Below are positions 2,586 through 25,089 of a stretch of DNA of 64,000 nt, piece after piece. A program made the position numbers and the translations under genes. The DNA is from Ailanthus altissimus (Eukaryota > Streptophyta > Magnoliopsida > Sapindales > Simaroubaceae). Location: positions 12,062,501 through 12,126,500 of the forward strand of contig OX327690.1 in the NCBI GenBank assembly GCA_946807835.1, read 5' to 3'. Under the pieces are notes generated by a model. That model saw only the letters and a program-made list of their open reading frames with translations. It was not told the DNA's origin and ran no database searches. Within the stretch, counting starts at the first letter, position 1. Each line of letters begins with the position of its first letter.

Positions 2586-2746
2586 AATGATGTTTATGTG
2601 GTATCCTTTATACCTTCCAGGTATAACTTGGATACGTTTCATGACTATTCGATGGTCGTTACCTATATCAAACTAATGCCGATTCATAACACTTACAGCC
2701 ACCAAAATCCAAGACTCGTACATAACATGGTATACATCAAGCTACC
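2586..2746 (-). pseudogene. Copia X, RT/RNase H fragment (left part)
   Basis: Read on the minus strand this resembles the Copia RT-RNase H junction. A 'SLMYTMLCT' stretch lies next to 2746, followed by 'GNDHRIVMKR', which matches the usual MVCTRPD...HWxAVKxIL segment. It is the continuation of the pol fragment that ends at 18285: removing Gypsy element A (2747-18284) and one copy of its TSD joins the two halves. A homologous stretch occurs at 59637-59750. It is degenerate, with stops, and its downstream end is lost at about 2586. Confidence 0.7.
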
Positions 2747-4276
2747 TGATGAACATATAAAAATGCATATTTATTAAGAGATTCAGTCACAATTTAATGT
2801 CACTAATTTTAGCATTTTTGTACTTTTAGATTGAAATAAAGTGTTTTCCTTAAATTGTGATTAATGAATGTTATTTGCACAGGTTTATGTAAAATTGATA
2901 TAACTCTCAATGTAAAATTTGAAATAAAGAAATTCTTGAACCTAGAGTAACATAAATCAATTTTTGGCCCAAATCCAACATGTTATGGGCCAAAAATTGA
3001 GATATAGTAGAATCGGGCTACAACTTTCACTCAGCGTGACCCAACTCAAGTATATGGACCGTATCTCACAAAATACATACCCAATTGGTATAATGCTTGA
3101 ATTTATGAATAACGACTTAATTATCAACAACTCTTATGTTGATGGTAAAGTCCAAATTAGCCGTTATCATGGACCAAATTATCTTGCAAGTGGGTAAAAG
3201 GGTTGTTGGCCTAAATCTGACGTATCTTTGACATTTTGCCCATATCTCATTGGATACTCATCTAATTTGTATGAACTTGATGCCTATGGAAAGAAAAGAC
3301 TAAAAATCTACAACTTTCATGTTGGTCATAAAAGCTACATCGGTCATTTACATTATCAAAAATGTGCTTCAAGTGGGTGAACGACTTGTTGGCATAAAAT
3401 TATCGAAGATTGATGTCACACATGACATATTTCCATTCATTGCCTATATAAGGACACTCTTAGGACGTTTTCAACATTAGATAATTCTCTCTTATTTTTT
3501 TCTCATTAACATGTATTGTAATCTAGGCTAGAGTTCTCGGCAAGGCTAAGAGATGAACTTTTATGTGTAATAAATCTACTTATATGCTTTGATTCGTTGT
3601 CAAGTCTACAAATGTTTGTAAGTTTAGTTTTGATTAAACTCTTATCTATTTTATTTTCTATAATACAAAGATAATAATTCTCATGTCTCATATATGTTCA
3701 GTCATGCTTTTCTTATGTGATTCTTGTTGAATTATAATTGTTATTGGTTACATTGTTTTATATGTTAATCTTTTACTGCAATATTGTCGACCTTGGATAA
3801 CATGTAAAGACAATAAATGTTTAATATTCAAGTTGATCTTTTACTGTAATATTGTCAAAATGATATATTGTCAATCTTAGATAACTTGTATAAATGAACA
3901 TGATTTGTGTTAATATTTGTAAAAAAAAGTTTAGTCATATCAAATGCATGTGTCATCAAAAGTTCTATATTTTACATATCTTTCGATTGATTGTTTAGAT
4001 GTAAAATTGTCAATTAAGTTATAAACATTTAATCAAAGTGTATAGTAGATTTATAAAGTATGATTGTGATTCTCAAAGCCTTACTTAAATCATTATAAGA
4101 CATTTTTCTCAATTCATAGACAATTCTATCTCATCCACTTAAAGCAATTAATTAATTTTCTCCTTTGCTACTGCTTTAATATTTTACTATACCAACCTAT
4201 TTTGCCAAAAGCTTCCTCGTGGGATCAACACCTCAATCTATACTGTGATAGCCGCATTATATTTTGAACGTAAATA
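2747..4276 (+). repeat. Element A 5' LTR
   Basis: Begins TGATGAACAT after TSD CTACC and ends GTAAATA, where the sister copies have GTAAACA. It aligns along its whole length with 5581-7134 and 16723-18284. A TATA box, TATATAAG, lies at 3445-3452. Near 3770-3900 a stretch containing 'atcttttactg' and 'ataacwtgta' occurs twice in tandem; this copy has lost about a dozen bases of the first unit relative to the 3' LTR. Confidence 0.93.
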
Positions 4277-4281
4277 AAATT

Positions 4282-4299
4282 TGGCACCGTTACCGGGGA
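4282..4299 (+). other. Primer-binding site, tRNA-Asp type
   Basis: TGGCACCGTTACCGGGGA lies 5 bases after the 5' LTR. It matches the complement of a plant tRNA-Asp 3' end at 16 of 18 positions; both differences are G-to-A. This primer is typical of Athila/Tat-type Gypsy elements. It fixes the orientation of element A. Confidence 0.85.
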
Positions 4300-5267
4300 G
4301 GCACACTAAGTGAAAGTCGATTGCGTTTATCAATACTAAAGCGGTAACTTTGTACATTTTCTTTTCTTTGTAAAATCTTGGTTTTATTTCTTTTGCTGTA
4401 ATTCATTTTATTGTTCATGGTTGATTCTACCACCTAATTTATTTTATTTTCTTCGTTAATTTGTTATATTTTATATTATTTTAATGATTGGTTTTACCGC
4501 TTAATTTAGTTCATTTTGCTTCGCACTTTTTTCTTTTATTTATTTATCGTACTTTATTTTTTTTATTTATTTATTGTACTTATTTATTTAGTTAATTTAT
4601 TGTATTTTCATTTTAATGGCTGGTTCTACCGCCTAACTTAGTTTATTTATTTATTACACTTTATTTTTTTATTGCACTTTAGTTCATTTATTGTACTTTA
4701 TTTATTTATAGTACTTTATTTTTTTATTTATTTATTGTACTTTTCTGTATTTATTATTTTAGTTTTTTATTTAATTATTGTACTTAGTTTCTTTAGTTAA
4801 TATGTTAAAATTTTATTTTATTTTAATGGCCGGTTCTACCACCTAACTTTTTATTTATTTACTTATTGTACTTTATTTTATTTATTTATTGTACTTTACA
4901 TTTTATTTTCCTTTATTTATTACACTTTCTTTTCTTTTATTTACTTATTGTATTTTTTTAATTTATTTATTGTACTTTTTTTTATCATACTTTACAGTTT
5001 ATTATCTTTTGTATTGTATTTATATTTCATGGTTGGTCTTACCACCTAATTCATTTCTATTTCTTGTTGTGTTTTATTTCACTTCTTAATTTTTCTTGAG
5101 CATTTCTTTCATAAAAAAATAAGAGTAAAAAAAAAAAATTATTAGGATGTATGCATCAACTTAGAGACAAACGAGGGAAATTTGTGAGAGAAGTAGAACT
5201 AGAATCACCACCATAATTTGTAAAGAAAGAGAATTCACCATCTAATTCATCTTGTAATTCCAACACA
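4300..5267 (+). repeat. Element A leader with five repeated motifs in a TTTATTTATTG tract
   Basis: Untranslated leader between the primer site and gag. It is a T-rich tract built of TTTATTTATTGTACTT-like words, and it is punctuated by five diverged copies of TGGTTCTACCGCCTAA at about 4422, 4489, 4617, 4827 and 5031. No coding frame is supported; the short frame at 4889-5089 is low-complexity Tyr/Phe/Leu. The motif could be a packaging or translation signal, but that is a guess. Confidence 0.7.
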
Positions 5268-8200
5268 ATGAGCCAACACGAAGATAACCCCATTAGGACT
5301 CTAAAAGATTACTTGCATCCTACTTGCACAGCCACACCATCATGCATTATATTTTCACCTAACACACCACATTTAGATTTTAAACCTGGAATGATATAAC
5401 TTCTGCTCACTTTTCATGATCTAGATAATGAAAATTCTTATGTACACGTTAGGGAATTTGAAGAGGTAATTTCCACCTTCTATAGCCAATCTGAAGCCAT
5501 AGACACTGTTAGGCTTAAAGTTTTCCCTTTTTTCTTTGAAAGACAAAGCAAAGAGTTGGCTATACTCTTTGAGGCCAAGGTGATGAACACATGAAAATGC
5601 ATGTTGTTAAAAGATTCAATCACCATTTAATGTCACTAATTTTAGTATTTTCTGTATTTTTAGCTTGAAATAAAGTGTTCTCCTTAAATTGTGATTAATG
5701 AATGTTATTTGGACAGGTTTAGGTAAATTGGACATAACTCTCAATGTAGAAATCGAAATGAAGAAATTATTGAACCTGGTGCAACATGACTCAATCTTAC
5801 ACAAATTTGAAGAATAGTGGAAAAGCCAAATCCAACATGTTATGGGCCAAAAATTGAGATACAACAGAATCGGACTACAACTCTTACCCAGCTTGACCCA
5901 ACTCACGTATTTGGACCGTATCTCTCAAAATACGTACTCAATTGGTATAATTCTTGAAGCTGTGAATTGCGGACTTAACTATCAACAACTCGTATGTTTA
6001 TGGTAAAGTCCAAATCAGCCGTTATCATGGACCAAATCGCATTGCAAGTGGGTAAAATGGTTGTTGGCCGAATTCTGATGTATCTTTGGAATTTTGCTCA
6101 TATCTCATTGGATACTCATCCAATTTGCATGAAATCAGTGCCTATGGAAAGAAGAGTCAAAATTCTACAACTTTTATGTCGGCTACAGAAGCTGAATTGA
6201 TCATTTACATTATCAAAAACATGCTATAAGTGGATACACGAGTTATTGGCTTAAAATTATTGAAGATTGATGTCATCCATGACATATGTCCATTCATTGC
6301 CTATATAAGGAGACCCTTAGGACGTTTTTATGAGATAATCGTCTCTTCTTTTATTCTCATTAACATGTATTGTAATTTAGGCTAGAGTTCCTAGTAAGGC
6401 TAAGAGATGAACTTTTATGTGTAGTAAATCTACTTCCATGCTTTGATTCGGTGTCAAGAGCTATAAATGTTGTAAGTTTGGTTTTGATTAAACTCTTATC
6501 TATTTTATTTTCTATAATTCAAAGGTTATAATTCTCATGTCTCATATATGTTCAGTCATGTTTTTCTTATGTGATTCATGTTGATTTATAATTGTTACTG
6601 GTTACATTGTTTTATATGTTAATCTTTTACTGCAGTATTGTCAATTTGATATATTGTCGATCTTGGATAACATGTAAGGGCAATAAATGTTTGATATTCA
6701 AGTTAATCTTTTACTGTAATATTGTCAAAATGATATATTGTCGATCTTAGATAACTTGTATAAATAACATGATGTGTGTTAATGCTTGCAAAGAGTTTAA
6801 CTAAATCAAATACATGTGTTATCAAATGTGCTATATATTACATACCTTCCGATTGATTGTTTGGGATGTGAAACTTTCAGTTGAGTTATAAATATCGAAT
6901 CAAAGTATAGAGTAGATTTATAAAGCATAATTGTGATTCTCAAAGCCTTGCTTAAATCATCATAAGACATTTTCCTCAATTCATAGTCAATTCTATCTCA
7001 TCCGTTTAAATCAATTAACCCTTTGCTACTGCTTTAATATTTTACTTCACTAACCTATTTTGCCAAGAGCTTCCTCGTGGGATCGACACCTCAATCTATA
7101 CTGCAATAGCTGCGTTATATTTTGAGCGTAAACACAAGGTCTATAGGAACTTGGGCAGAAATAACCCAAGCATCTTTCAATAAATACTTCCCACAACACA
7201 AAACTAATGACCTAAAAAGACAAATTTCTTCCTTCTCCCCAAAAGACAGTAAAACCTAATATCAAGCATGGAAAAGGTTTAAATAGTTGGTAAATCTGTG
7301 CCCTCACCATGGGTATCAAAATTGGCGCTTGGTTAGCTATTTTTATGAGGGACACATAATTAGAGAGCGCCAATTTATTAAGATGATGTGTATTGGAGAG
7401 TTCCTTAACAAAGATCCAGAGGAAGCCATAGAATTCCTTAATGACTTAGCTAAAAAAGCCCATACATAGACTGGACCTAACATGACTGAAAGCATAAATA
7501 GGTCATGACCCAGTGGAGTTTTCCATCTTAGGGAAGAGGATAACCTCAAAGCCTAATTAGAGGTCTTAACTGGGGAGTTAGAGGCCTTGAAAGCCAAAGA
7601 TAGAATGGTCACCCACACGGTTGCTAAGGTTGAGTCACACGATATCTATTTTGTTTGTGGAGGAGTGGAACACTTAGCTCAGGATTGCCTCACTTATAGT
7701 GAGATGAGAGGGATATATGACGAATAATGTAATGCCCCGGGGATGTACAAGAAGCCTTATTCACCCTACTCTGAAACCTATAATCCTAACTAGAGAAACC
7801 ACCTAAACTTTAGTTGCAAATCTGACCAACAAACCAACAACCATTGGAAATAAGAACAACAAGCACCCAAGTCTTATGTTACACCTCAATATAATGGACG
7901 ACCAGCCATGAGTAATTTAGAGGATACATTACAAGCATTTATGGAGGCACAAAGTAAGACTAATCAAAAGTTTGAAACAGTTCTTGCACAGATGATAGAC
8001 AAAAACAAAGAAATCAAGAGTCAAATCACAAAGTTGACCAGTGCCTTAACTGTACAAGAGCGAGGTAAGTTTCCATCAACCTCAATCCAATCCAAAAGGA
8101 TAATTCATGGCACAAGCTTCTACTTCTAATGCACAAAATCTCAAAGAAGTCAATGCTATTACTACTCGAAGTGGTAAGATTGTGAGTGAGCCTACTTATC

Positions 8201-8510
8201 CAACTAACACATCGATAAGTAATAAAGACGCCCCCATTGAAAAAGAGGCCATAGTGGAAAAAGAGCCTGAAAATAAGTTTTCAACCCCAGTGCCTTTTCC
8301 TCAAGCTCTTCGATCGATTGGGAAAAATTCAGAAATTCAAGGTGAGATTTTAGAATATTTGAAACAAGTTAAGATTAATCTTCCCTTGTTGCATTTGATT
8401 AAGCAGGTTCCAACTTATGCCAAAGTCATCAAGGATCTATGCACTATAAAAAAAACACAATGTAAAGAAAATTGCATTTTTGGCAGAACAGGTAAGTGCA
8501 GTGATTGAAC
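5268..8510 (+). pseudogene. Element A gag (split by a solo LTR, with stops)
   Basis: Structural capsid protein. ATG at 5268 opens MSQHEDNPIRTLKDYL. The first exon-like part runs to 5580 and resumes at 7140, the frame reading through 'LRPR|SIGTW' once the nested solo LTR and one TSD copy are removed. Further on come 'CPHHGYQNWRLVSYFYEG' and 'GEFLNKDPEEA', typical of plant Gypsy gag. A zinc knuckle follows (about 7650-7690, CGGVEHLAQDC, with the first Cys replaced). Then a helical tail (7908-8090) and a basic linker with ITTRSGKIV (8158-8190). Several stops and frame changes break it. Confidence 0.9.
5581..7134 (+). repeat. Solo LTR of the element A family nested in gag
   Basis: Starts TGATGAACAC and ends GTAAACA, flanked by the exact 5-bp duplication CAAGG (5576-5580, 7135-7139). 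It is 1554 bp and homologous to both LTRs of element A, with TATATAAG at 6302-6309. No internal sequence is attached, so it arose by LTR-LTR recombination after insertion. It is the same family as its host element and in the same orientation, so it came from a different copy. Confidence 0.95.
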
Positions 8511-8539
8511 AAAAGACACCACGAAAGTATAAAGACCCA

Positions 8540-9195
8540 GGATGTCCCAAATCTCCTACCAAATTGAGACACATGAGTTTGGTCAAGCTTTATTGGACTT
8601 AGGAGCAAGTGTAAATTTAATGCCTTATTCTATTTACTTGCAATTGGGACTTGGTGAGATTAAACCTATATCTGTAGTCCTACAAGTAGCTGACTGATCA
8701 ATCAAGAAACCACAGGGAATAGTAGAAGATTTTTGTTACAAATTGATAAATTTTACTACCCTATTGATATTTTTGTTTTAGATACTCATTCTATTGTTAA
8801 CATGGAGTCAAAAATCCCTCTTATTTTGCGGAGACATTTTCTTACTACTACTAACGCTCTTATTAATTGTAGAAATGGTCTAAGGAAATTATCTTTTGGA
8901 AATATGACTCTTGAGGTGAACATTTTTAATATTGGCAAACAACCACGAGAAGAAGACAAATTTATCATTCATATATGATAGACACACTTGTAGTGGAGGA
9001 AGCTTATAAAAATCATGGCTCTGATTCTTTGAAAAACCTTCTCAATTTTAACTTTGAAGAATTGTGTTATCTTGATGAAACAACTGATGTGTTTAGTATT
9101 TTTGACTCACAGGATAAAGGGACTCAATTTTTGGAAGCTAGGCATTGAAGAGTTTCCACGAGAGAGGGAGAAATCAAAGCCATCAAACCTTGAGA
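8540..9195 (+). pseudogene. Element A protease and protease-RT linker
   Basis: Retropepsin-like aspartic protease that would cut the Gag-Pol precursor. The catalytic motif DLGASVNLMPYS is readable, with its Asp codon at 8596-8598. It is followed by LQLGLGEIKP, by 'GIVEDFLLQIDKFYYPIDIFVLD' with a frame change near 8730, and by the C-terminal 'ALINCRNGLRKLSFG' (8853-8900). The linker 'REREKSKPSNLETP' runs into integrase sequence at about 9190-9230, so reverse transcriptase, RNase H and the first part of integrase are deleted. Stops are present. Confidence 0.85.
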
Positions 9196-9199
9196 CACC

Positions 9200-9850
9200 A
9201 CGTGCCATCAAATCTTGAGACACCAAGGAACACATTTCTGTAACCGTTCTTTTAAAGCTTTGATGCGTAGGTATGGTGTTCGTCATTAAATTTCCACTGC
9301 ATACCATCTACAGGCAAATATACAAGCCGAGCTAACAAATAAAGAGGTTAAACAGATTTTGAAAAAGACGGTTAACCTAAATTGCAAAGATTGGTCTTTA
9401 CGCCTTTCTGATGCATTATGGGCATATCGCACTACACACAAAACCATCTTAGGAATGTCTCCATACCGGCTTGTTTATGGGAAAGCTTGCCATTTACCTG
9501 TTAAGCTAGAGCATAAAGCTTATTGGGCTATCAAAGCCCTTAACTTTGATTTGAGTACTGCAGGCCTTCAGAGAAAGTTACAATTGTCAGAAATAGAAGA
9601 GCTACGAAATGACGCATATAACAACTCCAGAATTTACAAAGCTCATGACAAACAGATTTCAAGGAAACACTTCAAGCCAAATCAATGGGTCTATCTTTAT
9701 GATTCTTGATTACATTTACACCCTGAAAAAGTTGAGATCTCGATGGACTAATCCATTTAGGGTAAGGCACATTTTTCCTAATGGTGCTGTCGAAATCGAA
9801 GACCCCACTGATGAGAAAGCTTTTAAAGTGAATGGACAGCCGCTTTAAAG
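9200..9850 (+). pseudogene. Element A integrase, C-terminal half
   Basis: Enzyme that inserts the cDNA. It opens in the core domain just before a GTHFCNRSF-like segment (9224-9252, frame shifted). Then come '[18 protein letters not shown]' (9295-9350) and an uninterrupted frame at 9359-9709 with [13 protein letters not shown] and [16 protein letters not shown]. The C-terminal 'RSRWTNPFRVRHIFPNGAVE' (9740-9800) matches the GPF/Y-type module. The zinc-binding and first catalytic regions are lost with the upstream deletion. Start and frame are fragmentary, so no initiation codon can be chosen. Confidence 0.88.
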
Positions 9851-10191
9851 CTATATGGAAAAGGTAGACCACTCTATGTACCTAGACGAGATCCCTCTTG
9901 TGGATCTTGTATATCATGCTTGATCAGGTTCAATCTATCTGTACCATATTTTATATTTTGTCTATATTTTATCTTTTGACTTTTTATTTTTATTTTTTTG
10001 CTTTTATTTTCTTTCACATTTTCTTTTACTTTATTTTCTTCTTTTTCTTTTTTTTTTCTTCAATGTGATTTTATTTCTCGATCAAGTGGTGGATACGGTA
10101 CTCCGTGACTATTAAAGTCGATTTTTCAATTCCCTAAAAACTGTCCCCCAAACTGTGCATTCATCTCTTTTCTTTTTCACTTTCTTTCAAA
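9851..10191 (+). other. Spacer after integrase, pyrimidine-rich
   Basis: Carries the tail of pol to about 9920, then a tract rich in TTTTATTTT and TTTCTTTT (9950-10075). The frame leading into the next ORF is closed by a TAA at 10135-10137. Nothing else was recognised. Confidence 0.5.
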
Positions 10192-10809
10192 ATAGATCGC
10201 ATTCTTGCCAACCTTAAAAAATGCTTTCCTTCATTGCCTCAAAATGCTCTACTTAAGATTTACAAAGCATGGTGTGAAAGACTAAGGCTATTGAGGTTGA
10301 GTAATATCCCTGTGGATATTCGTTGGTTAATTGAAGCCAATGTTTGATTATCTGGTGAGTCTGCAAATGATTTTGTTTCTTTTATGTCTGGTCTTGGAAA
10401 AAACTCTTATGCCAAAAGGCGACGAGCAAAGAGGTTACAAGTTTGTCATAAATATTCTCGATGGAATTGTAACCGAAGTTGTCGCTCTTTAGGATTTGTA
10501 TCTAGAAATTGAGAAGGCAAAATTCAGTTCATTAAGGATGGACTGAGTAAGGAGTCTTTGGATGATATCCTATTGACTCTTAAGACGCATCCCTGTGGGC
10601 TCGTGCAACGTGAACTTCTTGATTTATAAAATAAATTCAAAAAAGAACATCAACGGTATAGTCTCGGGAATCTGACTCTAAAAGACCATGTTTACCAATT
10701 TATAAGAAAATTGGATGGGAAGCCTATCCCTGACCCATAGAGGGTGTTTAAGCCGTTACTGGACATAAAACCAGAGGAAGATGTGAGCCACAATCACAAC
10801 TACCTGTAA
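10192..10809 (+). pseudogene. Non-standard 3' ORF with a basic, cysteine-rich segment
   Basis: A single frame of 205 codons (from GAT at 10195) holds from 10192 to a TAA at 10807-10809 with no frameshift, but with four in-frame stops (10345 TGA, 10510 TGA, 10627 TAA, 10738 TAG). ATA at 10192 sits where a start could have been (ATG to ATA, inferred). Residues 74-80 are KRRRAKR, followed by Cys-84, Tyr-87, Cys-92 and Cys-96, then 'GKIQFIKDG'. A basic cluster just ahead of a cysteine cluster resembles the small nucleic-acid-binding, silencing-suppressor type proteins at the 3' end of carlavirus-like plant RNA viruses; this is a weak, pattern-level match. It is not a known gag, pol or standard env. 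It lies after integrase and before a LOG-like gene in the same element. Confidence 0.55.
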
Positions 10810-10968
10810 ATACATGTGTTTTAATTTCAAAACTTTATTTTTATGAATAGTAGGGCTACTCATATAGAAGTCTTAAATTTAAATCTTTTGGTTAAATAAT
10901 GCATGTAGGTCATTATCTTTAAATTTTTATGTTTTATTTTTAAATCTCTTCTGACAAACGGTCGGGTT

Positions 10969-13140
10969 TGTAGACGTATTTTAGGGTGTATGCATGTCAT
11001 TGTGTACATATTGAAAAATTAAAATTATGCATCATATATATAAATTTGGCAGCGGAATTTATCAAGTAATCAACATATACACATGTTGTTCAATTCTTAA
11101 CAACTTAAGAATACAGAAAACATACCTTTGAAGACCTCCGATAAAGATTTCGAATTCCGAATATCTTTGCTCCAATTTTGAGCTCACCTTGAAGTGTACT
11201 TTTGTCCAATTCTAGTTCACAACAATCCGGTGGGATTGTGAAGCTAGAATAGCAGCAGTATAATCTCCAACAACAAGGTTTTGATTCTAGAAAGAAAAAT
11301 ATGAAGGATTTATTTTCTTTCTCCTTTGGTTTTTCTCACAAGTCTTTGTTCTTTGAAAAACTCTCTCAAAACCAACTCTTCTTTTTCCTCTCAACCCTTG
11401 CACGAATTTTTATTCACTCTCTTGTTAACACACTTGAAACTCAACCATTTTTAGTGGTTACAACAACTTCACAAATGCTCTACCAAAATTAGATTAAGTG
11501 GCCAACTACCAAAACAATTTTTAGTGGCCATTTTAATGGTCTCATAAATTTAACCATTAATCATTAAATAGTGCTCCACTAAATTTAGTTTATGTTTCTC
11601 AAATTAGGTATGTCTTCCATTTAGAAAAAAATAATAAATAAATAAAATCATATTTTATTTATTTAAATAACATTTATTTAATTAGTCAAACACTATTTGA
11701 ATAATTAATATTTACCTTATTTGATTTTACTAATATGGTAAATGGTTGAATTCATGGTAAAACAGTTCATACAATAAAATTGTGCCACTTGTTAATATCT
11801 AATTAGTTAATAACTCTTGTCAACTAATTAAATAATATACTTAACATTTAAGTTTAAACAAGTGCACAACCCGAGGAACCCCAAAACATATTTTCGGTTT
11901 GTTAGAATTTCTAGGATGGAACTGTTCAATCATTATACTGCCCCAGTGCACAACGAGTACACTTCATATTGTGAGACTCTCTAGGTCCACGCCCGAATTG
12001 TCATATAGTACTCCTCCATACTTCCATGAACGATGCCCCACACACACGTTACGGATATTACAAAGCAGCGTGTTAGACCATACAAGTTGAGGTTATAACA
12101 TATTCATATAATCCCTACATCATTTATATTCGAGTAGAGTAGAGATACAGATCAACACCGTCAAATCTCCATATGCCCGACTGAAAACTTATCTCTTGAA
12201 TTGTATTTCAATAAATAATATTCCCAAACACTTTTGTAATATTATTTATCCCTAGGGTTAAACTCTTTTCCCATGAATTATTGCTTATGGCCATAAGACT
12301 TTCTGAAATACAATTTATAGAGTATTACGATATAATACTCACCCAAATGAGTTGATGGATCCCATATCTATGCACACTGGACTCCATGAGCATCGAACCA
12401 TACCCAGCGACACCCAGCGGTCAGACCATGAAAGGTTTCTAACATGTGTGGAACCAAAGTATGGTGGATCACTCACAAGCCCACTGTGGCACTCAAGTCA
12501 AAGGACCACGATTACTACTCAACTCGAAAGATCCTCCATTGACGGCTTTATGGGATGTCTATTGGAGATCTTTGTGAGTCTGTTCAGTATTCAGTCCTTA
12601 CTGAATACCTGTATCTCTATACGAGCTTCCACTAAACTCATGGTTTGCTAAGAATAACCATCTGGACCATCCAGATATAGACATACACTAATCTATATAT
12701 TTGTTAAGGTATTCATTGATAGACCTGCATTAGTAAAGATATATCAGGAACATAATATTTGAGAACATATTTGCATAATGACATTTCCTAACACTATTTG
12801 CAACTCTTTATAATTATGTCATTACTAATATATTCTTAGGTCTTTGTCCCATTTCAGACAAGACTCTAACTCTTTAGATATTACTGACTCTTATAGCCTG
12901 ATAACTCTTATCAGTGCCAACTTTTAGCATTTATAACTCTCAGCGTTGCTAATTCTTAGCACTGATCTAAACTCATTTAGACCAGATCTGAACTCTTTCA
13001 GATCGTATAATGTCTGAAACGTTACAAGCATCTTACCATATATAAATATAATTAGCGATTTATTGAAATAATAACACTAGTATAAATATTAAACAAATAT
13101 TTATACATAATGGGATGGCACGTAAGCATAAACCCCAACA
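10969..13140 (-). repeat. Solo LTR of the Copia X family (minus), inside element A
   Basis: On the minus strand it starts TGTTGGGGTTTATGC and ends ACGTCTACA at 10969. The exact duplication GGGTT flanks it (10964-10968, 13141-13145). Length 2172 bp, same subfamily as 46169-48344. It separates the two 3' genes of element A and is younger than that element. A frame at 12352-12651, antisense to the LTR, recurs in other copies. Confidence 0.95.
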
Positions 13141-13174
13141 GGGTTACCACAATTATTGTTATCATTTAGTACTC

Positions 13175-13182
13175 TATAAATA
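13175..13182 (+). promoter_or_regulatory. TATA box ahead of the LOG-like gene
   Basis: TATAAATA lies 53 bases before the presumed ATG at 13235, in the context CTCTATAAATACAAC. It belongs to element A proper, just to the right of the solo LTR. It suggests that the LOG-like gene had its own promoter. Function is inferred from sequence and position only. Confidence 0.5.
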
Positions 13183-13234
13183 CAACACCTCATTTTCTTT
13201 ATTTTCATATATTGAGATAAAAGTTAGTGTAGAT

Positions 13235-13881
13235 ATGGAGGAAACCTCAATTCAACCATTCCAAAATATATGTGTATTTTTGGATCTAGTCCTAGGGGAA
13301 ATAAAGTGTTTGTAGAAGCAGCAAACAATCTAGGAAAAACATTAGCTGTAAGAAAATTTTATTTGATTTATGGAGAGGGTAGCCTTAGGTTAATGGGGTG
13401 TGTGTCAACAGCTGCACATTTAGGAGGAAGTCAACTTTTAGGTATTATTCCTACAGCTTTAGCCGTGGGAAACCTGACTGGGAAAACAATAGAAGAAGAA
13501 TTACGAGTCTCATCCATGTATGAACGTATAGTTAGAATGCTTTACAATGCAGACGCTTTTATTACTTTACCAAGTGGCTTTGGTACCTTAGAAGAAAATT
13601 TTCAAATTGCCTCTTGGGCCCAGCTGAATATCCACTGAAAACTCATAGGTTTGTTGAATGTTAATAACTATTTTGATTTCTTACTTTGTTTTCTTGATCA
13701 AGCTGTGGAACAAAATTTTATTTCATATTCGGCGCGATAGATCTTCATTTCTGCCACCAATGCAGATGAATTAATTGACAAATTATAGGTAGTTACCTAC
13801 GAACCTGACCCAGCAATAACTCAAATCGATTGGTCAGTGGGCCTTAACAAGCGAAAATTGGATCTGACACTTTGTTTGTAA
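13235..13881 (+). pseudogene. LOG: LOG-like cytokinin riboside 5'-monophosphate phosphoribohydrolase, intronless, inside a Gypsy element
   Basis: LOG enzymes release active cytokinin bases from their ribotides in the cytosol. ATG at 13235 opens MEETSIQPFQNICVF. One extra T near 13276-13281 shifts the frame, after which GSSPRGNKVFVEAANNLGK continues. Family landmarks in order: 'LIYGEGSLRLMG' (usual GGGSxGLMG), 'GIIPTAL', 'DAFITLPSGFGTLEE' (usual PGGxGTxxE), 'WAQLNIH', 'IGLLNVNNYFD', 'FLDQAVEQNFIS'. The stop is TAA at 13879-13881, about 215 codons, the usual size for the family. Three in-frame stops (13636 TGA, then TAGs near 13738 and 13786) kill it. Plant LOG genes normally have several introns; none is seen here, so a captured cDNA or retrocopy is likely. 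It lies within the 3' part of element A. Confidence 0.85.
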
Positions 13882-16722
13882 ATTTTTCTTTATTTTATTT
13901 ATTTATCAGCATCATCATTTTAGTTTATATTTTCTTAAGTGTCTCTCAGGTTTGTTTATTTCGAATAATTGGCATTTTAGGTAATGTCTCCTATACTTTA
14001 TCTCTTTCTATTTAAACATCGAGGACAATGTTTCATCTGGTTTGGAGGAAGATAGTAGACATAAGTTGCATTTTGCATTAAAAAAAACAAAAATTTTGTG
14101 GTCTGACATTTGATTAAAATGGCAGAGTAAAGAGTTCATTTTTGAACTCTTGAGACACATTCTAGGTCAAATTAGAATGGCAGAGTAAGGAGTTTTAGTT
14201 CTAACTTTTGAAACGTATTTTAACTAACTTTTTATTGTTTTGTTTTATATTTCATATATTATTGTTTATTTCTTGTAGTCTTGGTAATTCCTGTATAAAG
14301 GAATTTATTTTTCTACCTAAGTATGATTGCAAAATTGTTTAGGTTGAGTCACTGTTTCTATTTAAGTTATTAAAGAATGACTTCCAAAATATTTTTGAGC
14401 ACAATGCTAAGCCTTGGGGTAAGACGAATGATGCGATATTTCTATATCATAAAATTAAGTGCAAGTATACACTATCGTATGCAAGTAATAAAGAGACTAA
14501 ATAAGTCGGATGTCGAACCCACAGGGATAATTTTTTCTTTTTAACCAATTACTAAAATTATATCTTCCTAATAATTATTCAGATAAATAAAAACCTAAGA
14601 ATGAATGTAGAAAATATAAAAGTAAAAACACAATGCAAAGAGAATGAGAAGATAGCAATGTAGAGAAAACCTAGGATTAATATTATCCCTCAATATGCTT
14701 TTTTAATGATTAATCTTCTAATATTTAATTCAATTAGTCTTTATTATTGATCAAGACACTAATGTATTCACAAGTCTCTTCCAAGGTCATGCAAGTATAT
14801 CTTAGTTTACCAAATACCTATATTCCTATGGTACTTGTAATAAATTAAGATTCATTAAGATTAGGTCTTATTGATCATACATGCCAATTAGGTATATTCC
14901 TATCCTAAATTGAAACTTGCATATGCAACATTGAATGTTACTCTACAATCATGCATCAAATTACATAGGTCTAAATATATTTATTCCTCTTCCGAGTTTA
15001 TCAATAATATTACCAACTCATTCACCATATATTGGCCAGATATATTGATGCATTAAACACAAGTAATTTAAATAATAAATGACTAAGTTTATTAAATACT
15101 AAAAGATATGGCAATTTAAGCGTACATATTGAGTTCAAATATTAACCCTAGAAAATAAATTAGTTTATAGCGACAAGAGAACAGCAGTAAAAATAATTAT
15201 AAATCATGATACAATTATTAGCAAACCGAAATAGACGTCAAATTGCTCTTAATTGCGCTGTCTAGGAACTCTTGATGTCGAAGAACGTCTTGTATCTCTC
15301 TCTAAAGTTGCTTCAATTAAACTTCTATTACTCTCCAAGACTTGTGCTCTGTATTCGTGGTGCTCTTAGGTCGTCTTGGATTCCTCCTTGAAGGCTGGGA
15401 ACGAGTGGCTTTATATAGGGATTGATATGAGCTTGAAAATCTCAATTCTCGTCGGACTAGGACTCGCACTACTGCTGGCGCGCTATGCAGTTGTCGCTGG
15501 GGCGACGCGTGAAAAAGCTATTACCGCTGGAGCGGTGGGATCTTGGCGCTGGGGTGCTGTATGAAAACGGCTTCACCGCTGGCGCGGTATGTTGATAGAG
15601 CTGGGGCGATGAACCGTGGCTGGCGCGGTGACTCTTTGGCGCTGAGGCGCTAGACGCGACTTAAGTAGGTCGTTTTTCTTATTTCGATCACTATTCTAGC
15701 GCTGGGGCGACAATAGTTTTGGCGCGGGGGCGCTGGACACATACTTTAAAAACTTTGCATTTTAGTCCCTATTTTTGCTCCTTTTGCATTCTTTCTTTAA
15801 ATTTCGTTCAAGTCCCTATAAATAACAATAATGCACATAAATAGCCATCTATTCTCATAAAATCATAAAATATCAATAATAAAAACATGAGAAAATATAT
15901 GACAAATTTGCCCTTATCAACGGATGATTCAATTTATATAGCTAAGAGAATTCCTATGTTTAAGTATATATTTTTCTAATCTCACATATCTTTTGTGAGT
16001 AAGTGAAAAGGTTGAGAAAACAGCTTATAAACCTTCATTGATCCTTTGAATTGGTTCATTTTTGTTTAGATTGATATTATTTGAATTACGGAATAAGTTG
16101 GTTGCATTTGTATATAATATAATTTGGTGAGAAACCTTTGTAATGCTTCCTTGTATTCTTCACAAAAAAAATTCAAAAAAAAAGAAAGCAAAATACCAAA
16201 AAGAATCAATTCAGTTTAATAAAGTCTTCATTCAATTTAAGAAGACAAATATTTTGTAAAGCAGTTTTCTTACCAAGTTATATTTGTATTATTCTCACAA
16301 GCCAATTGAAGTTCTAAAGCTGGCGTATGTTAAGAATAATTGATTTTTAAACAATTAATTTTTCTATCTTTGGATCAATGTTAATTTGTATGTCTGTCCT
16401 TAAAATTGACTTTTTCTTAAGTGCTTAACTGTTTTCCAACTCCATGAGAGAAATCATAACCTTTTAAACAGTCATATATTTGTGAGGATATAGAGTTGAG
16501 GCTTTTACTTGGAGAAATTCTCAATGCTATATCTGTTGTGGTTTGTGATAAAATGGTTATGATTTAGTTCACACATACACAATTTTTAGAAGTTATAATT
16601 GAAAAAACTATAATAGCAACAATGATCATTAACTGACTTTTTGTTTGAAATGCTTAGGTAGTTTTGCATATTCTATTTACGCTTGAATTACTAGAGACTA
16701 GCAATAAGCTGGTTGGGGGCTG
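13882..16722 (+). other. Element A 3' untranslated part and polypurine tract
   Basis: Non-coding, interrupted by the solo LTR at 14429-15919. 'cgaggacaatgtttcatctg' then GGTTTGGAGGA (about 14021-14051) is a motif often found downstream of pol in plant Gypsy elements, and its presence after the LOG-like gene shows that the gene lies inside the element. A partial direct repeat, 'aatggcagagtaaRgagtt', occurs at about 14119 and 14176. The run GGTTGGGGGCTG at 16711-16722 is the polypurine tract beside the 3' LTR. Confidence 0.75.
14429..15919 (-). repeat. Solo LTR, family C (minus), inside element A
   Basis: On the minus strand it starts TGATAAGGGCA and ends ATCGCATCA. The flanks ACGAA (14424-14428) and ACGGA (15920-15924) are a TSD with one mismatch. 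Homologous end to end with 57149-58608. The minus-strand TATA box CTATATAAAG is at 15409-15418. Just upstream of it (15430-15730 in plus coordinates) is a GC-rich run of CGCTGGGGCG-like motifs. The LTR style suggests Gypsy, but no internal region is present to confirm. Confidence 0.92.
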
Positions 16723-18284
16723 TGATGAACACATGAAAATGTATATTTAAGAGATTCAGTCACCATTTAATGTCACTAATTTTAATATTTTTGTACTTTT
16801 AACTTGAAATAAAGTGTTCTCCTTAAATTGAGATTAATGAATGTTATTTGCACAGGTTTAGGTAAAATAGACATAACACTCAATGTAAAATTCAAAATAA
16901 AGAAATTATTGAACCCAGAGTAACATTACTCAATCTTACATAAACTTGAAGAATGGTTGAAAAGCCAAATCCAACATGTTATGGGCTAAAACTTGAGATA
17001 CAATAGAATCAAGCTACAACTTTTATTCGACTTGACTCAACTATAGTATTTGGACCGTATCCCACAAAATACATACCCAATTGCTATAATTCTTAAAGCT
17101 GTGAAATACTGACTTAATTATCAACAACTCGTATGTTGATTATAAAATCCAAATCAGCCGTTATCATGGATCAAATTGTCTTGCAAGTGGGTAAAAGGGT
17201 TGTTGGCCTAAATCTGATGTATCTTTAGAATTTTGCCCATATCTCATTGGATACGCATCCAATTGTCACACACTTAGTGCCTATGGAAATAAGATACACA
17301 TTTCTACAACTTTTATGTTGGCCATAAAAGCTACATCGGTCATTTACATTATCAAAAAGGTACTTTAAGTGGGTGAACGAGTTATTGGCCTAAATTTATT
17401 GAAGATTGATGTCACACATGACATATTTCCATTCATTGCCTATATAAGGACACTCTCAAAACGTTTTCAACATTAGATAATTCTCTCTTTTTTTTTTCAT
17501 TAACATGTATTGTAATCTAGGCTAGAGGTCTTGGCAAGGTTAGGAGATAAACTTTTATGTGTAATAAATCTACTTATATGCTTTGATTCATTGTCAAGAG
17601 CTATAAATATTTGTAAGTTTGGTTTTGATTAAACTCTTATCTATTTTATTTTCTATAATCCAGAGGTTATAGTTCTCATGTCTCATATATGTTCAGTCAT
17701 GCTTTTCTTATGTGATTCTTGTTGAATTATAGTTGTTATTGGTTATATTGTTTTATATGTTAATCTTTTACTGCAATATTGTCAACTGATATATTGTCGA
17801 TCTTGGATAACATGTAAAGATAATAAATATTTGATATTCAAGTTGATCTTTTACTGTAATATTGTCAAAATGATATATTGTCGATCTTAGATAACTTGTA
17901 TAAATAAACATGATTTGTGTTAATGTTTGCAAAAGAGTTTAGTCATATCAAATGCATGTGTTATCAAAAGTGCTATATTTTACATATCTTTCGATTGATT
18001 GTTTAGATGTAAAACTGTCAATTGAGTTATAAACATTGAATCAAAGTGTAGAGTAGATTTATAAAGTATGATTGTGATTCTCAAAGTCTTACTTAAATCA
18101 TCATAAGACATTTTTCTCAATTTATAGACAATTCTATCTCATCCACTTAAAGCAATTAATTAATTTTCTCTTTTGCTACTGGTTTAATATTTTACTTCAC
18201 CAACCTATTTTGCCAAAAGCTTCCTCGTGGGATCGACACCTCAATCTATACTGCAATAGCCACATTACATTTTGAGCGTAAACA
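16723..18284 (+). repeat. Element A 3' LTR
   Basis: Starts TGATGAACAC directly after the polypurine tract and ends GTAAACA, followed by TSD CTACC. Length 1562 bp. TATA box TATATAAG at 17441-17448. Between about 17760 and 17905 an 80-odd-bp unit with 'atcttttactg' and 'ataacwtgta' is tandemly doubled. Confidence 0.94.
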
Positions 18285-18289
18285 CTACC

Positions 18290-20600
18290 TCTAGCTGATG
18301 TATATTATATGTTAGACACTCTAACTATTTCATTTTTTACTTGAGGATACTTCCTCTTAGAAAGATGAATACCATGTCCAAAAGATACATTAATTATCTC
18401 ATAGTTATTAAAATTGCACTTTTTTTCAGGACTTAGTCTATGTACAAAGATTTAGAGAGTCCTATCTACTTCCTAACTTTATCTGTATAAAGCTTTATAT
18501 CCAATATGTAGGAAGCCTCTGCCAAATCTTTCATGAAGAAGTTCTTACTCAGTTAACTCTTAACTGACTGACTTGTAACATACCTTTGTCATTTTTTAGG
18601 ATGAGTATGTTATATATGTATAGAGAATTAGAAAGATAATTTATGCTCCCACTACCCTTTCTAAACATACATGCTTTCTCTTAGTTCTTAATGAAACCAG
18701 ACTTTCTGATTATTTCATCAAAACAAAGAGTTTAGCATACTACAATATCCAACAAAATTTAAATTAACTTTAGCATGTTTATTAGTGAAAGGTTTCCTCA
18801 TAATCGATCCCAAATCGTTGAGGGTAACCTTTAAAACCAATTGGGCTGTTAAAGGTTTTTACCTCCTTTTGAGCCCACGCTTTCATGCGTAAACTCTGAT
18901 TAAAACCAATAAGAACAATTCCTATAGGAAGCATAACCAAGTTTTCTAGAAAGAACAACTTATGATGGAACTTTATTCAATAAGTGTGTAGTAATTTCTT
19001 GAGCATAACTCATTAGTTACATTAGAAGATCATTAAAGCTTAATATTGATCAGATGATATCTAATAAAGTTTGATTTCTCCACTTCAAAACATATTTATG
19101 TTAAGGAGTATCTGGAGAACTATATTGAGCTATAATCTCATTCTTCTTTAAATAATTTGGGAATTTATTGCTTATTTATAAACAGCCTCTATCTAATCAA
19201 AGGTGTTCAACATACATATAGGTTTATTTCATTTACTTCTAGTCGAAATTCTTTGAACACTTCAAAAATTTGTCGCCTATGTTTTTCTAGAAACACATGT
19301 CTGTATCGTGACAAACTACGACAGAGATATCGAAGTAATAAATTTACCAATGGCAGTATGATTCATTAAATCATATACATCAATATATATTAGCTCTATT
19401 AAATCAATCGCCCAGTGTCCAACACCAACAAAAGAATTTAGTCAACTTCCCTTGAATACAAGATTCATAAACTGGACAAGATTCTATAGTCAGATCAAGT
19501 ATTTGACCATCCTTAACTAGACGGAATAGTCATCTCATGGCTACTTGACTTAATAACTTATGCCTTAATTCGTTATTATTCAAAGTTTTGAAACCACTAT
19601 ATGTTCTATTCACCTAGACATTTTATGCATTTGTTGTTGTATGTCATATGTAATGGCTATTTAATTGACTGATATTTAGTTAGAAAAATATTATCGTTAT
19701 CATATAACATGAAGAACTATTCTTAATGTATGTATGATAACCTCCTCTGTCTAACTTAGAGAGCGATATATTTTGCCTAAGTATTTTTTGGCACAAAATA
19801 ACAACAATACAACATAAAGCTTTTTACTAGAATGGAGAAGTGACTTAAAAGTCCTAACAACTACTATGTCTAGGTAATCTTCATTTCCTACGTGCAGTTG
19901 TACTTCTCATTTCATTATTTTCTAGTATTACTTAAATTATGCAACATCTTGCAGATGTGAGAAGGGCGGGCAATATCTCATATCCCTATACTTGTTCACA
20001 TCACTTGTATATGAAATGTCAATTATCGGTAAACAAATATCTAAGAGGTTTATCTTTACTAAGTAAAGTTTATTCAAATAGTAACTCTTACTATTTTAAA
20101 CCTTATTAATAATGGAAACACTTTCATTGTGAATTATTCTCTATATACATTTCAAATATATATAATAAATTTCAAATGAAGCATTACATAACTTGTACAT
20201 CTCATGTATATATGCTCTTACTGTAGATCATTAGATAGGTCAGGATATATAATTTGACTTTCAAATTATTCTTAATCATTTTTCTAATATCTATCATCTC
20301 TTCTCAAAAGACATTATTAGAAACACCTTATATATTATCTATTGATCTATTATATATCTGAGTATTTTTATTAATTAAGAACAATTCTTAGATTTATAAG
20401 CAAGTCTTAAATATCAAGTGTACAAAATCTCTATAAGTTATTTATCTTATCACTATAAGATAAATTGGAGATATAGCAGAACATTTCTAATCGTTAATAA
20501 ATAACGCTTTAAATCATGGATATAACTTTTATACATTTTTAATCTAAAGATGCCCTCTCACTGCTTTACATAATTCCCTAAATCTCTCAAAAGAAAAAAC
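18290..20600 (-). pseudogene. Copia X pol remnant: integrase and reverse transcriptase (right part)
   Basis: Minus-strand, heavily decayed. From right to left: a region around 19370-19640 compatible with pre-integrase/integrase; 'SRYRHVFLEKHRRQIFEVFK', an integrase core segment, at about 19240-19310; 'GYPQRFGIDYEETFH' of RT near 18790-18830; and 'ASYILD'-type and 'HGIHLSKRKYPQ' RT-end text near 18330-18540, which then joins 2746. The active-site YVDD is not intact ('YIYNILIL' sits in its place near 18600). Gag was not recognised. 19640-20600 is AT-rich and gave no secure domain. Confidence 0.7.
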
Positions 20601-21895: not shown

Positions 21896-24218
21896 TGTTA
21901 GAAATCGAGTGTGTGACATACGAGTGTATACATAATTTTAAAATTACTACACGCAACAGAAGCATGTTAACAAATACTCTCAATTTAACAAATTTAACCA
22001 CATATATCACATATATGCCCAAGTATAACTATTATACAACAAAAATATATGATGAAAAATTGTATACATAAAATTAAAATGTAAGAACACTTACCAAAAG
22101 AAGGTAGCTTTACAAAATCTTCAAGTCATCCAACAATCCAATTGAAGATCTCACCTTGAAGTGAATTGTTAACAATTTTAGTCCATAACGATTTGGTGGG
22201 ATTATGGAGCTAGAATGGTAGCTTAGTTTTTTAAAATTTCCAGCAACATGTATTTAAACTCTTTGAATACAATTTTTGTTTCTTAAATAGAGATGATAAA
22301 TATTTTACATACAACTCTTATATCAATTATTAGAAACAATTTTCATAGGATAATTATTTTGAACAACTCTTGTCCAAAATAATTATCTTTTCATTCATTT
22401 TTAGCCATCATTAAGAGAAGAAGAAGAGAGTTGTTTCATATTTTTCAACACTTGAAAGAACAAAAACTAATTTTCTCTTACTTCTCCCTTCAATCATCGA
22501 ATTTTTTCTTCAATTGAATTAAAATGAATCAATTCAATTGTTAGCTTAATCTCTTTTATTTTTGTTATTCAACACCTTTTGGTAAAACAAAAATAAGTGC
22601 TCCATCAATTTAGTTGTTGGTCTCCCATTTAAGATTAATTTAATAAGCACTTGAATAATGGCCACCTAACTAATTCATTACCTAACAAATATAATTATAT
22701 TAATCATATTAAATAAATAAATGGCCAACATTTAGGCCCCTTATTGTATTAAAATAAAATAGCCATAATTAATATATATTATCATATTATCTAATAATAT
22801 CCAATTTAATTATTCAAAACAATTTTGAATAATTACTTTTTACCTTACTAGTTTTTTACTACCAAGGTTAAATGGTAAAACTAAGGTAAATTTAAATCAT
22901 GGATCAAATTGTGCCACTTGTCAATCATCCTATTAATTAACAACTCTTGTTAATTAATTCAGTGATATACTTAGAAAATTAAGTCTTGACAAATGCACAT
23001 CCCGAGGGATCCCGAAATAATTATTCTATTTTGTTGGAATTTATTGGATCGAATTATTCAATCCAGTCTGCTACCCCAGTGCTCAATAAGTACACTTCAT
23101 ATTATGAGACTCCCTAGGTCCACACCTAATTTGTCATATGGAGCTCCTCCATAAATCAGTGAACGATGCCCCACACACACGTTACGGATATTACAAATCA
23201 GCGCGTTAGACCATGCAAGTTGAGGTTATTGCATATTTGTATACTCCCTCAATCATTTATATCTTAGAAGAGTAGAGATATAGTTCATCACCATCAAATC
23301 TCTATTTGCTCAACCATCAACTTATTTTCAGATTTATATTTTCTTAAATAATATCCACAAACACGTTTATGATATTGTTTATTCCTTCGGAATATATTTT
23401 CCAAGGTTTATGCTTGTAGTCACAAGACTTTTTGAAATACAATCTCAGAGCATTAAGATATATAATCCACTCATATGAGCTGATGGATCTCATATCTAAG
23501 CACACCGAACTCTATAAACATCGAACCATACCTAACGATACATAACGGCCAGACCATGAAAGGTCTCTGACATGTATGGAACCAAAGTATAGTGGATCAC
23601 TCACAAGCCCACCGTGGCGCTCAACTCAAAGGATCACAAATACTACTAAACTCGGAAGACCTTCAATTGATAGTTTTATAAGATGTCTATTGAAGGTCTT
23701 TATGAGTCTATTCAATATCCAGTCCTCACTGAACACTTATATGTCTATACGAGCTTCCACTAAGCTTATAGTTTGCTAAGACTAACCATCTGGACCATCC
23801 AGATATATACATACACTAATCTATATTAATGGGTTCCATCGATAGACCCGCATTGATGAAATTAGATCAGAAACATCATGTTTGAGAACATATTTGCATA
23901 ATGACATTTCTTAGTACCATCTGCAACTCTTTGTAACTATGCCATTATAAATATATTCTCAGGTTATTGTCTTATTTCAGATAAGCCTCTAACTATTTAA
24001 ATTTCACTAACTCTATTAATGTGCTAACTCATAGCACTGATCTAAACTCCTTTAGACCATATCTGAACTCCTTCAGATCATACAATGTCTGAAACGTTAC
24101 AAGCAACTTACTATTTATTATAAATAAAATTAACAATTTTATTAGAAATGATAATTGTATAAATACTATCATTAAATATTTATACATAATGGATGACACG
24201 TAAGCACAAATCCCAACA
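21896..24218 (-). repeat. Copia X 5' LTR (minus)
   Basis: Starts TGTTGGGATTTGTGC at 24218 reading left and ends TCTAACA at 21896. 2323 bp. Same family as the LTRs at 10969, 27104, 40579, 46169, 56040 and 60860. The right flank CATTT (24219-24223) would be the TSD; its partner should lie left of the window. A primer site follows, so this is not a solo LTR. Confidence 0.88.
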
Positions 24219-24224
24219 CATTTA

Positions 24225-25085: not shown

Positions 25086-25089
25086 TTAA

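What the first reader, a model, noticed from the sequence alone, without database searches (positions are those of the whole stretch)
13235..13881. An intronless LOG cytokinin-activation gene carried inside a Gypsy retrotransposon
The sequence shows LOG-family landmarks over about 215 codons without introns, placed between integrase and the 3' purine tract of element A. The 'cgaggacaatg' motif and the purine tract lie after it and both element LTRs share TSD CTACC, so it is cargo and not flanking DNA. Plant LOG genes usually have several introns, so capture through an RNA copy is the likely route. A mobile element that can raise active cytokinin would be a novel host-manipulation strategy. This copy is dead (one frameshift, three stops).
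Basis: partly seen in the sequence, partly recalled or inferred. Interest (0 to 1): 0.88.

Follow-up and report, generated by a model that had tools for sequence, protein, structure and literature searches.

The report
Retrotransposon carrying a remodelled hormone-enzyme gene
A plant jumping-gene family that has copied itself very recently carries, at one fixed place beside a plant-virus-type RNA-binding gene, its own version of the LOG cytokinin-activating enzyme, and this version has a changed hormone pocket and a new tail predicted to bind the host's TOPLESS gene-silencing machinery, so it likely serves the element's own survival.

Summary
13235-13881 is a broken LOG gene (one frameshift, three stops) inside a Gypsy element with TSD CTACC and a paralogous empty site. 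The window copy is not alone: in the host genome 150 of 150 scored places match, 134 without internal stop (best of 6317 loose candidates); all 31 other fetched loci, chosen by LOG likeness, keep integrase-NABP-LOG at fixed spacing. Two of three dated copies have identical 1557-bp LTR pairs. A relative of the upstream gene passes Pfam cut-offs for viral nucleic-acid-binding proteins; another element has that gene without LOG in the slot. Element-type LOGs form one clade (100/99) and keep both catalytic residues (105 of 111), but 106 of 111 lack the conserved pocket lysine, and 90 of 111 end in LxLxL against 0 of 120 cellular LOG1/3-type proteins. Cytokinin activation is therefore doubtful; a nuclear, TOPLESS-recruiting nucleotide hydrolase is the best reading. 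LOG in Gypsy elements is known from Citrus and Populus (PMC9289625); the tail, pocket change, viral-type partner and recent burst were not found in my searches.

The parts
2747..4276 (+). 5' LTR of element A (TSD CTACC just before it)
   Evidence: K2P to the 3' LTR 0.096 over 1522 columns
4282..4299 (+). primer-binding-site-like stretch TGGCACCGTTACCGGGGA
   Evidence: read directly; likeness to an Athila/tRNA-Asp site is recalled, not tested
5581..7134 (+). nested solo LTR of the same family, TSD CAAGG
8107..8508 (+). gag-protease-like fragment of element A
   Evidence: open frame; no Pfam match; the likeness is recalled
9323..9706 (+). integrase C-terminal remnant
   Evidence: colinear with the integrase frame of L001; no Pfam match of its own
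10192..10737 (+). remnant of a viral-type nucleic-acid-binding protein gene (NABP), start lost, three internal stops
   Evidence: PF05515 E 1.9e-4, below cut-off; relative P0121 above cut-off; tblastn 87% over 182 aa; stops seen
10741..10806 (+). 22-codon in-frame stretch after the NABP stop codon, conserved in L001 and in the host loci
10969..13140 (+). solo LTR of another family inserted between NABP and LOG, TSD GGGTT
   Evidence: absent from the 31 other loci by spacing
13175..13182 (+). TATAAATA, 60 bp before the LOG start codon
   Evidence: sequence; present within 100 bp upstream in 30 of 31 other loci; promoter role predicted
13235..13881 (+). LOG-family gene remnant, one frameshift and three stops, C-terminal tail KRKLDLTLCL retained
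14020..14030 (+). CGAGGACAATG motif followed by a purine-rich stretch; marks the 3' side of the LOG slot
   Evidence: GAGGACAATG 787-788 bases after the LOG start in 30 of 31 loci and in L001 without LOG
14429..15919 (+). further nested insertion (88% to 58608-57149)
16711..16722 (+). G-rich stretch GGTTGGGGGCTG adjoining the 3' LTR, presumed polypurine tract
16723..18284 (+). 3' LTR of element A (TSD CTACC just after it)

Best explanation
The sequence at 13235-13881 is a decayed copy of a LOG-family gene carried at a fixed place by a recently active Gypsy family, and its intact relatives likely make a nuclear nucleotide-cleaving enzyme whose tail is predicted to recruit the host co-repressor TOPLESS. 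Shown: position behind integrase and a viral-type nucleic-acid-binding gene; many uninterrupted copies; recent transposition; constraint on LOG between the window copy and a host copy; in relatives, catalytic arginine and glutamate kept, pocket lysine and glutamate lost, and a conserved basic-plus-LxLxL tail behind a variable linker. Predicted by model: the LOG fold with a disordered tail. Inferred: membership in the Athila lineage; expression from a TATA box 60 bp upstream; phosphoribohydrolase activity on a 5'-mononucleotide with changed base specificity; nuclear entry through the basic stretch; TOPLESS binding; benefit to the element by changing host transcription or development in the cells where it replicates, together with an RNA-binding partner that may counter RNA silencing.
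For: Own genome: 150 of 150 scored places match, 134 without internal stop, 34 at 100% (rounded) to P0001, on all of C1-C32 (the best-scoring of 6317 loose candidates, so biased to intact). 31 of 31 other loci (chosen by LOG likeness): integrase end, NABP, LOG in order, start-to-start 864 nt in 30 and 865 in 1; LOG uninterrupted in 27, NABP in 26 of 31. LTR pairs: 0 of 1557 differences in two copies, 2 of 540 in a third, all with 5-bp duplications. dN/dS of window LOG against a host copy 0.41 (bootstrap 0.24-0.74) although the window copy has decayed; NABP of L001 against a host copy, both intact, 0.18 (0.10-0.28). R98 and E121 both kept in 105 of 111. Model of P0001: pLDDT 86.8, residues 203-215 under 50; Foldseek best match 2a33 (At2g37210), rmsd 1.1-1.5. 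Tail: LxLxL in the last 12 residues in 90 of 111 element-type against 0 of 120 cellular LOG1/LOG3-type; L211 94 of 96, L213 89 of 94, L215 93 of 94, K206 103 of 105 rows with a residue, against 30-64 of 105-111 at 9 of the 11 columns 194-204 (W200 and S201 are conserved); P0081 ends in DLNLTP, the other EAR form (recalled). LxLxL proteins bind TOPLESS (PMC10942257, passages).
Against: No transcript, protein, enzyme or binding data. LxLxL is a short motif; binding is untested. The element-type set was gathered by likeness to the window protein, tail included, and only LOG1/LOG3-type cellular proteins were counted as contrast. Being inside an element is shown by DNA only for the host genome; for other species it rests on copy number, scatter over chromosomes and PMC9289625. 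The fixed NABP-LOG order was seen in loci chosen for their LOG; the search from NABP (P0121) did not complete, so the share of family members without LOG is unknown. Xanthoceras proteins (4 of 4 among the 111) keep the pocket lysine and glutamate and lack LxLxL, so the changes are not universal. Window NABP against a host copy gives dN/dS 0.52 (0.26-1.30), not distinct from neutral. 'Athila-like' was not tested by a reverse-transcriptase tree. The window copy itself is dead.
Confidence: 0.5

Rival explanations
1. The element's LOG is an ordinary cytokinin-activating enzyme, which would raise active cytokinin in meristem cells and so promote division of the cells in which the element replicates.
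For: Predicted LOG fold; catalytic pair kept in 105 of 111, with G114, G115, G117 and T118 in 92 of 111.
Against: Pocket lysine (CgLOG Lys100) replaced by M, I or L in 106 of 111 and pocket glutamate (CgLOG Glu125) replaced in 106 of 111; both are kept in 120 of 120 cellular LOG1/3-type proteins, LOG8 and two bacterial ones. The CgLOG paper reports almost complete loss of activity on alanine replacement of the AMP-binding and catalytic residues, Lys100 among those it names, S19A excepted (PMC4979012, passages). It does not explain the LxLxL tail.
Confidence: 0.22
2. The LOG fold no longer catalyses; it is a nucleotide-binding scaffold that presents the LxLxL tail, a decoy or repressor subunit.
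For: Changed base pocket; tail conserved behind a variable linker.
Against: Catalytic residues and the phosphate loop would be expected to drift; they are kept in 105 and 92 of 111.
Confidence: 0.2
3. Passive cargo: a LOG transcript was captured once and is merely carried along.
For: Capture of host genes by LTR elements is described in plants (PMC7264820, part 1 of 3 read).
Against: dN/dS 0.41 with a dead copy on one side; 86 of 112 relatives of 190 aa or more are 215-217 aa long, 53-76% identical to P0001 in a sample of 30, though protein databases favour open frames; same slot in 31 of 31 loci.
Confidence: 0.06
4. Chance retrocopy of a host LOG that landed in this one element.
For: Intronless frame.
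Against: 31 of 31 other loci hold it at the same place; element-type LOGs form one clade apart from the sampled plant cellular LOGs, 100/99. The host's own cellular LOG genes could not be searched (and later unanswered).
Confidence: 0.01

Closest known systems
LOG (YgdH) domain in Gypsy consensi of Citrus sinensis, C. clementina and Populus trichocarpa (PMC9289625, section 12 read; cites Steinbauerova et al. 2011, not held, whose abstract I recall as naming two Athila-like elements with LOGL4 likeness)
   Same: LOG-family domain as an extra gene of plant Gypsy elements
   Different: That section gives no catalytic, tail, partner-gene, selection or dating analysis of LOG; here fixed order with NABP, pocket change, LxLxL tail, constraint and very recent copies are added
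Phalaenopsis Gypsy elements with an AlkB m6A demethylase gene (PMC9289625, abstract, section 12 and passages read)
   Same: Gypsy lineage that took up and kept an enzyme gene
   Different: Different enzyme; activity there was shown in vitro, here it is predicted
Extra ORFs of sunflower Athila and Tekay elements (PMC11728184, abstract and passages)
   Same: Extra genes of plant LTR elements, for one of which (Tekay) a role in RNA-silencing modulation is already suggested
   Different: No LOG and no nucleic-acid-binding protein is named there (0 occurrences of 'lonely' and of 'nucleic acid binding')
Cellular plant LOG enzymes (At2g37210, 2a33; At5g11950, 1ydh)
   Same: Predicted fold (rmsd 1.1-1.6), catalytic Arg and Glu
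   Different: Pocket Lys and Glu, C-terminal tail, intronless and multicopy in elements
Carlavirus cysteine-rich proteins / Viral_NABP family (PF05515, PF01623)
   Same: Basic RRRAKR stretch followed by a four-cysteine cluster; P0121 above both Pfam cut-offs; the carlavirus PVH protein suppresses local silencing (PMC3689765, abstract and passages), while the same passages note that CVB p12 did not
   Different: Encoded by an LTR retrotransposon, 182 aa with longer conserved flanks; suppression untested
EAR-motif repressors such as RBE (PMC10942257, passages)
   Same: LxLxL motif
   Different: Here on a nucleotide-enzyme fold; no other domain was found by Pfam

Membership tests
LOG phosphoribohydrolase | Pfam PF03641 above cut-off and LOG fold | tested here: met
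   P0001 133.7 bits against 27; predicted model to 2a33 rmsd 1.1-1.5
LOG phosphoribohydrolase | PGGxGTxxE loop and catalytic Arg/Glu | tested here: met
   R98 and E121 both in 105 of 111, with G114, G115, G117, T118 in 92 of 111; the window copy has a loop glycine replaced
LOG phosphoribohydrolase | Adenine/prenyl pocket Met, His, Lys, Glu, Trp of cytokinin-type LOGs | tested here: not met
   Lys in 5 of 111, Glu in 5 of 111, His in 58 of 111; Met 100 and Trp 109 of 111
LOG phosphoribohydrolase | Hydrolysis of cytokinin riboside 5'-monophosphates | not testable with these tools
   needs an assay
LTR retrotransposon (Gypsy) | Paired LTRs, 5-bp target duplication, integrase of Gypsy type | tested here: met
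   integrase by likeness to L001, which has rve and H2C2
Athila lineage | Place in a reverse-transcriptase tree | not tested
   most of pol is missing in the window copy; likeness of integrase, primer site and motif is recalled only
Viral_NABP (PF05515) / Carla_C4 (PF01623) | Scores above Pfam cut-offs | tested here: met
   P0121 33.8 (23) and 28.5 (20.9) bits; of the three NABP proteins scanned, 3 of 3 pass PF05515 and 2 of 3 PF01623; the window remnant itself is below both cut-offs
EAR-motif protein | LxLxL or DLNxxP motif | tested here: met
   90 of 111 LxLxL, P0081 DLNLTP; 0 of 120 cellular; motif definitions partly recalled
EAR-motif protein | Binding to TOPLESS through the motif | not testable with these tools
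   needs two-hybrid or pull-down

The most novel reading that the evidence does not exclude
A plant retrotransposon lineage runs a two-gene host-manipulation cassette: a plant-virus-type silencing suppressor and a LOG enzyme re-armed with a TOPLESS-recruiting tail and a new substrate pocket, so that a hormone enzyme has become a nuclear effector acting on a non-cytokinin nucleotide (for example an N6-modified AMP or an immune-signal nucleotide), and the lineage is spreading now in its host.
Probability: 0.25. Interest if true: 0.93.

Novelty: new variant of a known kind. Interest (0 to 1): 0.77.

Why it matters
Whether accessory genes of plant LTR retrotransposons do anything for the element is an open question. 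Here a family with very recent copies keeps an enzyme gene under constraint, with a pocket change and a co-repressor-type tail not found in the 120 cellular LOGs counted, beside a gene of a family that includes viral silencing suppressors. Both genes are small and directly assayable, so host manipulation by a plant transposon becomes a testable claim. It also warns gene-family surveys: many annotated 'LOG' genes in some plant genomes are probably element genes.

Tried and rejected
Chance retrocopy and passive cargo: rejected or held unlikely. Idea that LOG belongs to the repeat ending at 13140: rejected, that repeat is a solo LTR with TSD GGGTT, and the 31 other loci lack it. Bacterial origin of the LOG: rejected, element plus plant LOGs stand against five bacterial ones with 100/99; grouping element LOGs with LOG1/3 to the exclusion of LOG8 is weakly disfavoured (p-AU 0.035), long branches in play. 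NABP structure: model too poor to search (pLDDT 53.3). Three viral-contig scans gave no relative. Polymorphism among the 31 loci (LOG 26 S, 25 N; NABP 27 S, 57 N) was not used as a test because the loci were chosen by LOG protein likeness. A first dN/dS for LOG (1.19) was out of register by one codon and is withdrawn; one search replaces it. Rfam on 2700-18400: one hit, not related. Literature: ten searches; some looked for LOG in retrotransposons, 25, 39, 40 and 78 for viral-type nucleic-acid-binding genes or suppressors in them, 59 for EAR motifs; one search found no paper with two or more of its terms.

Full report
1. What is in the window. Element A runs from 2747 to 18284 with LTRs of about 1.5 kb, target duplication CTACC, and a related sequence at 59600-60512 that lacks the element. 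K2P between its LTRs is 0.096 over 1522 columns, so this insertion is old. Three later insertions sit in it: a solo LTR of its own family at 5581-7134 (TSD CAAGG), a solo LTR of another family at 10969-13140 (TSD GGGTT), and a 1.5-kb insertion at 14429-15919 that has a copy at 57149-58608. Most of pol is missing, judged by the room left between the gag-like fragment and integrase; an integrase C-terminal stretch remains at 9323-9706.

2. The LOG remnant. 13235-13881 translates colinearly over about 215 codons with one frameshift and three stops. The open part scores 65 bits for PF03641 (cut-off 27). The nearest protein, P0001, is 82% identical and intact. A TATAAATA box lies 60 bp before the start codon.

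3. A second accessory gene. 10192-10737 is the remnant of a 182-aa protein. Its relative P0121 passes the Pfam cut-offs for Viral_NABP (33.8 against 23) and Carla_C4 (28.5 against 20.9); the remnant itself stays below both (21.9 and 16.5). P0121 has a basic RRRAKR stretch and a cluster of cysteines, of which C85, C93 and C97 are invariant and C88 is nearly so in 15 aligned relatives. 386 proteins match at E 0.001; named plants among the 120 listed are Populus, Rhamnella, Xanthoceras and Acer. P0001 and P0121 both come from contigs of 8723 bases, very likely one contig. The carlavirus PVH protein of this type suppresses local RNA silencing; the same passages note that CVB p12 did not (PMC3689765, abstract and passages).

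4. The slot. L001, plant DNA filed in a bacterial bin (3330 bases), holds an integrase frame (rve, H2C2), an intact NABP frame at 1787-2347 and the GAGGACAATG motif about 230 bases later; P0001 finds no match on the contig. DNA likeness is strong just after NABP and again just before the motif. So LOG is a module between NABP and the motif, gained in one line or lost in the other.

5. The host genome. (P0001 against G000, 939,062,666 bases): 6317 loose candidates, 150 scored, 150 match, 134 without an internal stop (16 with, my count of the listing), 34 at 100% (rounded; tblastn gives 99.5% for those fetched), on all of C1 to C32. The scored ones are the best, so the open share is biased upward. 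with the window LOG: 6203 candidates, 150 scored. Of 32 fetched loci one (L025) is the window's own; in the other 31 integrase end, NABP and LOG lie in order, start-to-start 864 nt in 30 and 865 in one; the motif follows 787-788 bases after the LOG start in 30 of 31 and the TATA box precedes in 30 of 31; LOG is uninterrupted in 27 and NABP in 26 of 31. These loci were chosen by LOG likeness. Three copies were dated from LTR pairs read apart: 0 of 1557, 0 of 1557 and 2 of 540 (part of the LTR) differences, each with a 5-bp duplication. The family has moved very recently.

6. Selection. Window LOG against a host copy: dN 0.067, dS 0.165, ratio 0.41, bootstrap 0.24-0.74 over 195 codons, although the window copy has decayed. 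NABP, both intact, L001 against a host copy: 0.18 (0.10-0.28); window NABP against a host copy 0.52 (0.26-1.30), not distinguishable from neutral; window NABP against L001 0.22.

7. One element clade. Of 120 listed LOG relatives 111 have 195 aa or more; 55 of these after removal of near-copies, with 24 cellular LOG1/3-type proteins, LOG8 and two bacterial LOGs, give one element-type clade, 100/99 (quick tree). A smaller set (13 element-type with the window, 7 plant, 5 bacterial) puts element and plant LOGs together, 100/99. Other cellular LOG subfamilies were not sampled. By my count, 37 of 120 listed are from Reevesia (16 chromosome labels) and 14 from Diplodiscus (10 labels); one Pterospermum cluster stands for 327 sequences. 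Diplodiscus also has a separate cellular LOG (P0319). That these are in elements is inferred for species other than the host.

8. What changed in the enzyme. Against CgLOG (PMC4979012, passages) both catalytic residues are kept in 105 of 111, with the loop glycines and threonine in 92; but the pocket lysine is M, I or L in 106 of 111, and the pocket glutamate is Q in 66, H in 37, E in 5 of 111; all 120 cellular proteins, LOG8 and two bacterial ones keep both. The four Xanthoceras proteins among the 111 keep both, lack LxLxL, and the one stands outside the other element-type rows, which suggests that the cellular state was lost after capture. The tail is a basic stretch plus LxLxL: 90 of 111 against 0 of 120 cellular, behind a mostly variable linker. 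P0081 ends in DLNLTP, the other EAR form (recalled). The model of P0001 has pLDDT 86.8 with a disordered tail and matches 2a33. LxLxL motifs bind TOPLESS (PMC10942257, passages).

9. Reading. The LOG is a kept accessory gene. Enzymatic or nucleotide-binding function is likely under selection because the catalytic set is kept; cytokinin as substrate is doubtful because the base pocket changed; the tail predicts nuclear co-repressor recruitment. How this helps the element is inference.

10. What is known. LOG domains in Gypsy consensi of Citrus and Populus are in print (PMC9289625, section 12). A role in RNA-silencing modulation has been suggested for a Tekay extra ORF (PMC11728184, abstract and passages). 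The review of extra ORFs (PMC7264820, part 1 of 3), the sunflower study and the lineage survey (PMC6317226, passages) do not mention LOG or NABP in what I saw. My ten searches found no report of the tail, the pocket change or the viral-type gene in such elements; the library lacks most subscription journals.

Noticed in passing
window 10738-10809; L001 2345-2416: The NABP frame ends in TAG in 31 of 31 host loci, L001 and the window, and is followed in frame by a conserved 22-codon stretch ending in TAA: possible stop-codon readthrough or an RNA element.
   Followed up: partly
window 7209-7315 (-): Plant C/D snoRNA R71 match (RF00097, 48.2 bits, cut-off 40) inside element A just after the nested solo LTR.
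   Followed up: no
L001 (DAIEQH010000041.1, 3330 bp): A contig filed in a Candidatus Nomurabacteria genome bin looks like plant retrotransposon DNA, a contaminant.
   Followed up: partly
window 24218-25108: Tandem array of diverged A/T-rich repeats next to another copy of the 13140-type LTR.
   Followed up: no
window 5581-7134, 10969-13140, 57149-58608: Three solo-LTR-like insertions, each flanked by a 5-bp duplication (CAAGG, GGGTT, CTCAC).
   Followed up: partly
P0123: One NABP relative reads through at the place of the stop and ends in LSLSL, an EAR-like tail on the second accessory protein; 1 of 120 listed.
   Followed up: no
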